A stretch of 64,000 nt of DNA from NCBI GenBank assembly GCA_902778925.1, contig CACYZN010000026.1, forward strand, positions 1 through 64,000, written 5' to 3'. The DNA is from an uncultured Bacteroidota bacterium (GTDB lineage: Bacteria > Bacteroidota > Bacteroidia > Bacteroidales > P3). The notes beneath the pieces are model-generated. The model had not been told where the DNA came from, made no database searches, and saw nothing but the letters and a program-made list of their open reading frames with translations. Shown here in pieces: positions 34,227 through 35,990 of this stretch. Position numbers and translations under genes: made by a program. The stretch's first letter is position 1. Each line of letters opens with the position of its first letter.

Positions 34227-35375
34227 ATGTCAAAACCAATGGACAACTTTGTCGTATCGGCACGGAAATACCGTCCGGCCACCTTTGCCAGCGTCGTCGG
34301 ACAGGAACACATCACCCGTACCCTGAAGAACGCCATACTCACCGGCCAGCTGCCGCAGGCTTTCCTCTTCTGCGGACCGCGCGGAGTGGGCAAGACCACC
34401 TGCGCCCGCATTCTGGCCAAGACCATCAACTGCGAGCACCTGACCCCCGAGGGCGAGGCCTGCAACGAGTGCCAGAGCTGCCGCTCGTTTGTGGAAGGGG
34501 CCTCGATGAGTATCTTCGAGCTCGACGCCGCCAGCAACAACTCGGTCGACGACATCCGCGAGCTCGTCAAGCAGGTATACATTCCGCCCCAGACCGGCCG
34601 CTACAAGGTCTACATCATCGACGAGGTGCACATGCTCAGCGCCGCCGCCTTCAACGCCTTCCTGAAGACCCTCGAGGAGCCGCCGGCCTATGCCAAGTTC
34701 ATCCTCGCCACCACCGAGAAGCACAAGATAATACCCACCATACTGAGCCGCTGCCAGGTGTTTGACTTCAAGCGCATCGAGGTGGCCGACATCGTGGCCC
34801 ACCTGCGCTACGTGGCCGACCGCGAGGGGGTGAGCTACGAGCCCGGCGCCCTCGACCTCATAGCCCGCAAGGCTGAAGGCGGCATGCGCGACGCCCTCTC
34901 CACCTTCGACCAGCTGGTCAATTTCACCCAGGGCAACCTCACCCGCGCCCTCTGCCTCGAGAACCTCAACGTGCTCGACGAGGACTACTACTTCCGCCTG
35001 GTCGACAGCGTGCGGTCGGGCGACATCAGCGGCGCCCTGCTCCTCTACCGCGAGGTGATAGGCAAAGGCTTCGGCGGCCAGCACTTCCTCACCGGCCTGT
35101 GCGAACACCTGCGCAACCTGATGGTGAGCCTCGACCCCCAGACCCTCGTCCTCATCGACGGCGGCGACGAGCTGCGCAGCCGCTACGGCCAACAGGCCCA
35201 GCGCTGCGGCCTGCCGCTGCTGCTAGGCTGGCTTACCATGGCCTCCGACTACGAGTATCGCTTCCGCGAGGCCAACAACAAGAACCTCTTTGTCGAGATA
35301 TGCCTCATGCGGCTGGCCTCGGCCTGCATGGCGCCTGCCGCCGCGCCGGCAGCAGCCCAGCCCCCGCAGGGTTAG
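34227..35375 (+). CDS. dnaX: DNA polymerase III gamma/tau subunit, N-terminal ATPase part
   Basis: 382 residues up to TAG 35373-35375. It is the clamp-loader ATPase: Walker A CGPRGVGKTT, a zinc-binding cysteine set (CEHLTPEGEACNECQSC), DEVHMLS Walker B, sensor 1 ILATTEKHK, then domain III (FGGQHFLTGLCEHLRNL). It ends in an Ala/Pro linker (MAPAAAPAAAQPPQG) exactly where gamma differs from tau in other bacteria. Downstream of the TAG the same frame stays open to 35990 and encodes the missing C-terminal tau part. So either the gene is broken, or a stop-codon readthrough makes both forms. Confidence 0.93.
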   Translation: MSKPMDNFVVSARKYRPATFASVVGQEHITRTLKNAILTGQLPQAFLFCGPRGVGKTTCARILAKTINCEHLTPEGEACNECQSCRSFVEGASMSIFELDAASNNSVDDIRELVKQVYIPPQTGRYKVYIIDEVHMLSAAAFNAFLKTLEEPPAYAKFILATTEKHKIIPTILSRCQVFDFKRIEVADIVAHLRYVADREGVSYEPGALDLIARKAEGGMRDALSTFDQLVNFTQGNLTRALCLENLNVLDEDYYFRLVDSVRSGDISGALLLYREVIGKGFGGQHFLTGLCEHLRNLMVSLDPQTLVLIDGGDELRSRYGQQAQRCGLPLLLGWLTMASDYEYRFREANNKNLFVEICLMRLASACMAPAAAPAAAQPPQG

Positions 35376-35990
35376 ATAGCAAGTAGTCCCGCAAGGGCAG
35401 GCACGGACACCCCCAAGACCGCTCCCGAACCCGAGCGGCCGCCGCAGCCAGTGGCCCCCGAGCCGGTGGTCGCCCCGCCGGCAGCGCCTGCACCGGCGCC
35501 GGCACCAGTGGCAGCGCCACCCGCCGCCCAGCACGGCCAGGCTCAGCGGCCACAGCGCCCGTCGCTGCTCTCCGGCTCCATAAACATCAACGTCGCACCC
35601 CCCGCGCCGACCGCCGTGCCCAAGGTGGCAGCCGACGTCGAACCCCTCACCCAGGAGGCACTGGAGCGCTACTGGACCGAGGTCGCCGACGAGCTGGACC
35701 TGCAGGAACTGCTGCGCGACGGACAGGTGCGCCTCGGCGAGAAGCCCGGCCTCATCGAGGTCGACGCCCAGACCACCTGGTTCCACGACGACTTCCGTCA
35801 GCACAAGCTCGACGTGCTCACCGCCCTGCGCAACAAGTGCGGCATGCCCATGCTCGAGTGCAAGGTGAACCCCCTCTTCGTCGAGAAGAACGGGGTACTC
35901 TACTCGCCCGACCAGAAATACAATGCCATGCTCGAGCGCAATCCGGCCATAGCCGGACTGCGCAAGCTGTTCCCCAACATAGACTACTAG
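35376..35990 (+). CDS. dnaX: dnaX tau-specific C-terminal part, in frame after the amber codon
   Basis: In the same frame as 34227-35375, 204 codons follow the TAG without another stop. An Ala/Pro-rich linker (TAPEPERPPQPVAPEP, then AAPAPAPAPVAAPP) leads to a folded domain (about the last 125 residues: LTQEALERYWTEVADELD, FRQHKLDVLTALRNKCGMPM, YNAMLERNPAIAGLRKLFP). It matches the C-terminal part of Bacteroidales gamma/tau proteins. Independent initiation at GTG 35451 is possible but has no obvious ribosome site. The domain is unlikely to be dispensable debris because codons and frame are well preserved. Confidence 0.7.
   Translation: MASSPARAGTDTPKTAPEPERPPQPVAPEPVVAPPAAPAPAPAPVAAPPAAQHGQAQRPQRPSLLSGSININVAPPAPTAVPKVAADVEPLTQEALERYWTEVADELDLQELLRDGQVRLGEKPGLIEVDAQTTWFHDDFRQHKLDVLTALRNKCGMPMLECKVNPLFVEKNGVLYSPDQKYNAMLERNPAIAGLRKLFPNIDY

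What the first reader, a model, noticed from the sequence alone, without database searches (positions are those of the whole stretch)
35340..35480. In-frame amber codon at the gamma/tau junction of dnaX
TAG at 35373 interrupts dnaX precisely in the Ala/Pro linker between the ATPase half and the tau-specific C-terminal domain. The frame then stays open for 204 codons in the same phase, with preserved protein-like sequence. Other bacteria make gamma and tau by frameshifting or transcription slippage at this place. A leaky stop would give the same two products by a different route. The alternatives are a sequencing error, a recent nonsense mutation, or separate initiation at GTG 35451.
Basis: partly seen in the sequence, partly recalled or inferred. 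Interest (0 to 1): 0.72.

Follow-up and report, generated by a model that had tools for sequence, protein, structure and literature searches.

The report
Conserved amber stop inside dnaX gene
In a group of gut bacteria the gene for the DNA-copying clamp loader carries a stop signal in its middle that has been kept in over a hundred species, which strongly suggests that ribosomes read through it part of the time to make a short and a long protein from one gene, a job that other bacteria do by slipping the reading frame.

Summary
Confirmed and extended. TAG at 35373-35375 interrupts dnaX in frame. It is not a local error: of 120 genomes of the genus (contains Candidatus Colimorpha, Bacteroidales), 112 had a readable junction. 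In 106 the junction stop is TAG followed by A with tau in the same frame; final stops of the same genes are mixed (TGA 59, TAA 23, TAG 22 of 104). The other 6 end ORF1 at AGG CNT AGC TAG and continue tau in +1. The bases after TAG (ATW GCA AGR) go against codon bias. A 3-5 bp stem 10 or 12 nt downstream occurs in 96 of 100 genes, about 40 in synonymous shuffles, but folding energy is not unusual. The post-stop part shows purifying selection. RF1 is present; no CUA-anticodon tRNA was found in an incomplete set. Eight other genera of the family have mostly one uninterrupted ORF, two use A-runs, one was unreadable. Best reading: programmed UAG readthrough making gamma (382 aa) and tau (about 587 aa). 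No protein evidence was available.

The parts
34227..35372 (+). dnaX ORF1: gamma-like product (clamp-loader ATPase, lid, domain III), 382 aa
   Evidence: NCBIfam TIGR02397 dnaX_nterm 417 bits, cut-off 250
35373..35375 (+). in-frame UAG at the gamma/tau junction
   Evidence: same column in 100 of 100 aligned genes; UAG in 106 of 106 main-type genes, always followed by A
35376..35384 (+). nine-base 3' context (here ATA GCA AGT; genus consensus ATW GCA AGR), held at nucleotide level
   Evidence: ATA/ATT 100 of 100 (ATC is 812 of 1173 codons in other conserved Ile columns); GCA 94 of 100 (264 of 1686 elsewhere); AGA/AGG 99 of 99 Arg (83 of 1094 elsewhere)
35388..35397 (+). small stem-loop CCC-GCAA-GGG, 5' arm starting 12 nt after the UAG (10 nt in most relatives)
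   Evidence: stem of 3 bp or more in 96 of 100 genes; mean 40.4, maximum 49 in 100 rounds of synonymous shuffles
35376..35987 (+). post-stop coding region: Ala/Pro linker and tau-type C-terminal domain, 204 codons, same frame
   Evidence: NF011531 positions 465-609; open 166-259 codons in 101 genes of the genus, the window's included; purifying selection
35634..35987 (+). folded C-terminal domain of the tau product
   Evidence: AlphaFold2: mean pLDDT 86, pTM 0.62; weak Foldseek matches to E. coli tau domain V, 5fku_E and 2aya
35988..35990 (+). final stop (TAG) of the tau frame

Best explanation
dnaX of this genus makes two proteins by programmed stop-codon readthrough. Most probably many ribosomes terminate at the UAG with RF1 and release gamma (382 aa). 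A fixed share decode the UAG with an ordinary near-cognate tRNA, helped by the cis-signal W-UAG-AUW-GCA-AGR and a small stem-loop 10-12 nt downstream, stay in frame, and make tau (about 587 aa), which carries the C-terminal domain that in E. coli binds the polymerase. One group of 6 genes has replaced the in-frame UAG by a +1 frameshift (AGG CNU AGC UAG), keeping the same two-product layout. Shown: conservation of UAG, context, stem register and frame; purifying selection past the stop; RF1 present; no CUA-anticodon tRNA in the set found. Inferred: that readthrough (or the +1 shift) occurs, which amino acid is inserted, how efficient it is, and the role of the two products.
For: UAG in 106 of 112 readable junctions of the genus, always UAGA, with the tau frame kept, while the final stops of the same genes are TGA 59, TAA 23, TAG 22 of 104. 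3' context against codon bias. Stem register conserved beyond protein constraint: 96 of 100 genes, at most 49 in 100 shuffle rounds; at 31 other places along the gene stems of 3 bp or more stay near expectation. Post-stop dN/dS median 0.47 in the C-terminal domain and 0.58 in the linker, 0.20 before the stop. No conserved start codon. Homopolymer of 7 or more within 60 nt in only 4 of 106. The 6 other genes keep a stop plus continuation by +1. Two other genera of the same family make the break with A-runs in all 18 genes read. RF1 gene over the family cut-off. The 44 tRNA matches carry ordinary anticodons, none CTA. UAG is an ordinary stop in the window: 20 of 45 greedy ORFs of 150 aa or more, some of them surely spurious.
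Against: No protein, ribosome-profiling or reporter data. The MFE of the hairpin window is not lower than in synonymous shuffles; a scan against simple shuffles shows a dip there (-1.0 to -1.5 kcal/mol at three of four window positions) but similar dips elsewhere, -1.43 at +43 and -1.07 at -56; the window's own 126-nt fold is ordinary (z -0.82); RNAalifold found no pair; L097 has lost the stem. The stem is only 3-5 bp, weak for a stimulator. By codon diversity alone the Ile column is not unusual (0.49, mean 0.43 of 12 other columns). The context matches no signal known to me. The tRNA set comes from one 93%-complete genome and lacks tRNA-Ile (GAT) and tRNA-Ala (TGC), so it is incomplete. The sequences are related, so counts are not independent.
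Confidence: 0.8

Rival explanations
1. Split gene: gamma ends at the UAG and the C-terminal part is a separate protein from an internal start in the linker (such as GTG 35451).
For: Start-like codons exist after the stop in each of the 100 genes examined: first ATG/GTG/TTG 11 to 111 codons after it.
Against: No start position is conserved. A split gene needs neither the same frame across the stop nor a fixed UAG, yet 106 of 112 keep frame 0 while the post-stop length varies from 166 to 259 codons in 101 genes, and the nine bases after UAG are held.
Confidence: 0.08
2. Another in-frame route past the UAG: the ribosome hops over it (stop-hop or bypass) without decoding it.
For: Fits in-frame continuation equally well; the 2016 recoding review (passage seen) says that in-frame stop hopping could underlie some supposed readthrough cases and that no occurrence is known.
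Against: Re-pairing hops need the same codon at take-off and landing: the codon before UAG has 17 forms and recurs in frame within 20 codons in only 25 of 106 genes.
Confidence: 0.06
3. UAG is read as sense by a dedicated suppressor or special tRNA, or is partly reassigned in this lineage.
For: None found.
Against: No CTA anticodon among the 44 tRNA matches of the window's genome; RF1 present with GGQ and PAT (the roles of these motifs are recalled); UAG ends 20 of 45 greedy window ORFs. Limits: one genome, 93% complete, tRNA set incomplete; a suppressor with an odd structure could be missed.
Confidence: 0.03
4. The tail after the stop is a decaying remnant and only gamma is made.
For: dN/dS is higher after the stop than before it (0.47 and 0.58 against 0.20).
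Against: The frame stays open for 166 codons or more in all 101 genes measured, median dN/dS stays below 1, and the domain is conserved (56 rows). The window's genome has one match only at E 1e-60 or better, so no other source of tau was seen there.
Confidence: 0.02
5. Sequencing error or recent nonsense mutation at 35373.
For: The window comes from a draft assembly of 54 contigs.
Against: Same TAG in 106 of 112 readable junctions, the window's included.
Confidence: 0.003

Closest known systems
E. coli dnaX -1 programmed frameshifting (gamma from A AAA AAG plus stem-loop; PMC5009743 section 21 and PMC3711429 section 23 read)
   Same: Two products, gamma and tau, from one dnaX at the same domain junction, with a downstream stem.
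   Different: E. coli: single ORF for tau, gamma from a -1 shift on a slippery run. Here an in-frame UAG ends gamma and tau needs readthrough; no slippery run.
Two-ORF dnaX with A-runs (17 fs-genes, 12 with poly-A; Antonov et al. 2013, PMC3711429, section 23 read)
   Same: tau requires recoding and gamma is the default product; found here in all 18 genes read of genera g7 and g9 of the same family.
   Different: Those change frame at a run of A; here the frame is unchanged and the barrier is a UAG.
Thermus thermophilus dnaX transcriptional slippage (PMC5009743, section 21 read)
   Same: gamma and tau from one gene by a non-standard step.
   Different: Slippage on an A-run; a homopolymer of 7 or more lies within 60 nt in only 4 of 106 genes here.
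Programmed stop-codon readthrough of RNA viruses (recalled)
   Same: Leaky in-frame stop, fixed short 3' context or structure close downstream, C-terminally extended product.
   Different: A bacterial chromosomal replication gene, and a 3' motif (AUW GCA AGR) not known to me as a readthrough signal.
prfB and Ty1/Ty3 +1 frameshifting (recalled) for the 6-gene group
   Same: Stop or slow codon in the A site followed by continuation in +1.
   Different: Site AGG CNU AGC UAG; re-pairing of the P-site tRNA in +1 would be poor, so the exact shift codon is unresolved.

Membership tests
dnaX (DNA polymerase III gamma/tau) | N-terminal clamp-loader ATPase, lid and domain III | tested here: met
   TIGR02397 417 bits (cut-off 250); PF13177 and PF22608 over cut-off; PF12169 (domain III) 24.3 bits, just under its cut-off 24.4
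dnaX (DNA polymerase III gamma/tau) | tau-specific C-terminal domain | tested here: inconclusive
   Matches the C-terminus of NF011531; no Pfam match; Foldseek to E. coli tau domain V weak (5fku_E E 0.067, 2aya E 0.17; 0 of 623 matches at E 0.001 or better); profile search of PDB sequences gave one hit, 2jrb_A 'ORF 1 protein', E 0.0079
Programmed stop-codon readthrough | Conserved in-frame stop followed by an open, selected frame | tested here: met
Programmed stop-codon readthrough | Conserved local context or 3' RNA signal | tested here: met
   Context. Stem: for; against or unspecific
Programmed stop-codon readthrough | Extended protein shown in cells, with an amino acid at the stop | not testable with these tools
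   needs mass spectrometry or reporters
E. coli-type dnaX -1 frameshifting | Slippery heptamer and tau in frame 0 without a stop | tested here: not met
   stop in frame 0; no A-run in the window's junction
A-run (slippage) two-ORF dnaX | A-run at the junction and tau in another frame | tested here: not met
   homopolymer of 7 or more within 60 nt in 4 of 106; tau in frame 0 in 106 of 112
T4 gene 60-type bypassing | Matched take-off and landing codons (recalled) | tested here: not met
   preceding codon recurs in frame within 20 codons in 25 of 106
UAG reassignment or dedicated suppressor tRNA | tRNA with CUA anticodon, RF1 lost or UAG rare | tested here: not met
   (window's genome only, 93% complete, tRNA set incomplete)
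+1 programmed frameshifting (6-gene group) | Zero-frame stop with the downstream domain open in +1 | tested here: met
   the shift itself not shown

The most novel reading that the evidence does not exclude
A whole bacterial genus makes the tau subunit of its replicase, likely essential, by efficient (tens of percent) UAG readthrough with an ordinary tRNA. The cause would be a compact cis-signal (NNW UAG AUW GCA AGR plus a 3-5 bp stem), a readthrough signal not known to me in bacteria, which one lineage has converted into a +1 frameshift site at the same junction while other genera of the family use A-run slippage or none.
Probability: 0.45. Interest if true: 0.88.

Novelty: new variant of a known kind. 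Interest (0 to 1): 0.78.

Why it matters
Making gamma and tau by recoding is a textbook case of frameshifting and slippage; this would be a different route to the same pair. It would give bacteria a conserved, testable chromosomal readthrough signal with over a hundred natural variants, and one family in which uninterrupted, slippage, readthrough and +1 solutions of the same problem can be compared. Gene callers end such genes at the first stop, so tau is probably mis-annotated in this genus (inference). It also bears on how much gamma matters: the nearest genera have a single-ORF gene, and this lineage has a gene whose default product is gamma.

Tried and rejected
Sequencing error or recent mutation: rejected by 106 of 112 readable junctions. 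Separate start: no conserved start. Homopolymer slippage. Re-pairing hop. Genome-wide UAG reassignment or suppressor tRNA. Known RNA family at the junction: Rfam gave only two chance-level hits (E 1.2 and 3). RNA editing of the UAG: not tested; set aside because the known bacterial A-to-I motif (recalled) differs.

Results against or neutral to the hairpin are kept: RNAalifold zero pairs, MFE against synonymous shuffles -0.08 +- 0.15, simple-shuffle scan unspecific, own junction z -0.82. The stem test that succeeded counts exact pairs in a fixed register (83 of 100, shuffles mean 36.0, maximum 51 of 200 rounds); the register starting 12 nt after the stop was added after I had seen the window's own clade. 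In one search, at 31 other places, stems of 3 bp or more stay near or below expectation; stems of 4 bp or more reach 12 of 100 against 3.8 expected at one of them (codon +41).

Element search: one search used one hairpin variant (CGCC...GCGG) only, which does not cover the window's own variant; 58 of 59 hits lie after a dnaX motif in Bacteroidales or Bacteroidetes records and 1 (Sulfitobacter, L189) does not. The short pattern is near its control counts in many genomes and was not used as evidence. A scan of plasmid records gave no place covering 80% of the gene.

Literature: eight searches in an open-licence library; no title or abstract start among the rows listed reports UAG readthrough in dnaX. 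The lists were capped: 20 of 46,476 papers, 20 of 55, 12 of 27, complete in the other five. Subscription papers are not covered. Papers seen: PMC5009743 (passages and section 21), PMC3711429 (passages and section 23), PMC8957277 (passages), PMC11126739 (passages); all others in search listings only.

Full report
Observation. The window carries dnaX on the + strand. ORF1 (34227-35375, 382 aa) matches clamp-loader ATPase and lid models and ends in TAG at 35373-35375. The next 204 codons stay open in the same frame to 35987; their product matches only the C-terminal part of the DnaX model NF011531 (E 2.7e-7) and no Pfam family.

Who it is. The genome (G000, 2.23 Mb, 54 contigs, 93% complete) belongs to a genus of which 120 genomes, its own included, were searched. 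Many of the named records are by title MAGs from ruminant or horse gut.

Conservation. Of the 120 genomes, 8 gave no readable junction (7 without a dnaX-level match: G013, G035, G044, G046, G056, G063, G093; and G103, fragments only). In the other 112, 106 have TAG at the junction with the tau frame continuing in frame 0, and 6 have another arrangement. In the 100 genes that could be codon-aligned from start to end (left out of the 106: L004, L029, L079, L104, L150, L151), the TAG falls in one column. The stop is TAG in 106 of 106 and the next base A in 106 of 106, whereas the final stops of the same genes are TGA 59, TAA 23, TAG 22 (104 seen) followed by T 38, A 25, C 23, G 18. This within-gene control argues that the identity of the junction stop is selected. 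The base before the stop is A 70, T 33, G 3, C 0, in gene regions of 45-68% G+C.

Nucleotide-level signal. After the TAG come ATA/ATT (100 of 100), GCA (94 of 100) and, in the 99 genes with Arg, AGA/AGG (99 of 99). In other conserved columns of the same genes ATC makes 812 of 1173 Ile codons, GCA 264 of 1686 Ala codons and AGA/AGG 83 of 1094 Arg codons. By codon diversity the Ala column is lower than all 17 other conserved Ala columns, the Arg column lower than 10 of 11, while the Ile column (0.49, mean of 12 others 0.43) is not unusual. So these bases seem held as RNA or DNA, not merely as amino acids. Next comes a small stem: CGCC/GGCG, CGC/GCG, GCC/GGC or CCC/GGG by subclade, its 5' arm starting 10 nt (12 nt in the window's own type) after the stop. 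A Watson-Crick stem of 3 bp or more occurs in 96 of 100 genes; synonymous shuffles with each gene's own codon usage give a mean of 40.4 and at most 49 in 100 rounds. At the 31 other places tested, stems of 3 bp or more are near or below expectation, and stems of 4 bp or more exceed it clearly at one (12 against 3.8). Against this: window MFE is no lower than in synonymous shuffles, the simple-shuffle scan is unspecific, RNAalifold gave nothing, the window's own 126-nt fold is ordinary, and L097 lacks the stem. I take the stem as probable, the spacer motif as firm.

Is the tail translated? The frame stays open 166-259 codons in 101 genes. Pairwise dN/dS (896 of the 4950 possible pairs, those with N-terminal dS 0.2-1.2 that gave usable values) has median 0.20 before the stop and 0.47 in the C-terminal domain (149 columns), and, on 641 pairs, 0.58 in the rest of the linker. 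This is purifying but looser than the ATPase part. First ATG positions scatter from codon 16 to 209 after the stop, first ATG/GTG/TTG from 11 to 111, so no start is conserved. The C-terminal domain folds with good confidence (pLDDT 86, pTM 0.62); Foldseek has E. coli tau domain V among weak top hits (5fku_E rank 7, 2aya rank 15; none at E 0.001 or better), next to CnfU, DciA and DnaA domain I. This is suggestive, not proof.

The +1 group. In L090, L100, L105, L106, L109 and L110, ORF1 ends AGG CNT AGC TAG and the tau frame is open in +1, beginning with the same kind of residues that follow the UAG elsewhere. On a quick tree they lie inside the genus; holding the six as one clade gives a better likelihood than the free search and is not rejected (AU p 0.767), and all 107 rows of the genus form one clade against the 9 rows of the single-ORF genera g4 and g11 (support 97; 89 in the wider tree of 155 rows). 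One origin of the +1 form is thus possible, not shown. A stop has been kept there in another frame relation, which argues that the stop itself matters.

Relatives. The family search covered 12 genera, the window's included. g2 (one genome) had no readable dnaX. Loci read: g4 (5), g11 (4), g6 (4), g12 (3) and g5 (2) have one ORF; g10 has 6 with one ORF and 1 (L126) whose tau lies in +1; g8 has 8 with one ORF, 1 at a contig end and 1 (L272) in another frame; g3 has 2 with one ORF and 2 at contig ends. The 12 g9 and 6 g7 genes read all have 9-11 A at the junction and tau in the -1 (+2) frame, the two-ORF slippage type described by Antonov et al. 2013 (section 23 read). From the order-level search (247 genomes, 240 with a match) I fetched 37 dnaX loci, chosen mostly for short ORFs or odd stops: 17 from 10 families have an A-run of 10-12 before a shortened ORF1, 2 have a +1 arrangement, and no second UAG type was seen. 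Frequencies in that chosen set mean nothing.

Trans factors. RF1 is present (497 bits, cut-off 423) with GGQ and a PAT tripeptide (roles recalled). The 44 tRNA matches of the genome, read with ARAGORN, carry ordinary anticodons with no CTA; tRNA-Ile (GAT) and tRNA-Ala (TGC) are not among them, so the set is incomplete. UAG ends 20 of 45 greedy ORFs of 150 aa or more in the window, dnaX ORF1 included and some spurious. So UAG looks like an ordinary stop, and leakiness would have to be local.

Mechanism. I commit to programmed UAG readthrough by a near-cognate tRNA at a locally weakened stop. Steps shown: fixed UAG, fixed context, stem register, selected in-frame tail. Steps inferred: decoding of UAG, the amino acid, the efficiency, the gamma:tau function. 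Atkins et al. 2016 (section 21 read) describe dnaX products in a 1:1 ratio by alternative means and name frameshifting, slippage and proteolysis; readthrough is not among them. A passage of the same review says that a UAG counterpart of the RF2 arrangement, in release factor 1 genes, is unknown. In E. coli reporters readthrough runs TGA > TAG > TAA (passages of PMC11126739), so a fixed TAG rather than TGA is not simply the leakiest choice. Eight literature searches, with capped lists, showed no report of this case (listed under Tried and rejected).

Verdict. Real, conserved and, as far as I could search, new in its route; novelty 'new variant of a known kind'. What is missing is any protein measurement.

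Noticed in passing
L274 and L292 (order-level genus g13, family f2), end of ORF1: Another two-ORF dnaX whose tau part lies in the +1 frame directly after ...CGT AAA TAA C / ...CGA CGA TAA C; looks like an independent +1 type.
   Followed up: partly
L126 (G180, genus g10): A single dnaX of g10 with tau in +1 after ...TCG CAA AGA TAA TAA, while 6 other g10 genes read have one ORF; new +1 site or assembly error.
   Followed up: partly
L272 (G148, genus g8): A dnaX with tau in the +2 frame after a GGGGG stretch, while 8 other g8 genes read have one ORF; perhaps an assembly error.
   Followed up: no
L276, L278-L291, L293, L301 (order Bacteroidales): Shortened dnaX ORF1 with an A-run of 10-12 in 17 of 37 chosen loci, from 10 families (in L286 the run lies 129 nt before the stop): the A-run type seems widespread in the order.
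   Followed up: partly
L149 (G004:C222): A second, single-ORF dnaX in a genome rated 5% contaminated, 63% identical to the window's; its C-terminus resembles L304 of another family, so contamination is likely.
   Followed up: no
L313 (window's genome, prfB-like): The RF2-like gene is one continuous 375-aa frame, apparently without the usual +1 frameshift (that it is prfB is judged from the weaker prfA match).
   Followed up: no
L189 (Sulfitobacter contig): Only non-Bacteroidetes hit of the element pattern; no dnaX motif in frame before it, taken as chance.
   Followed up: partly
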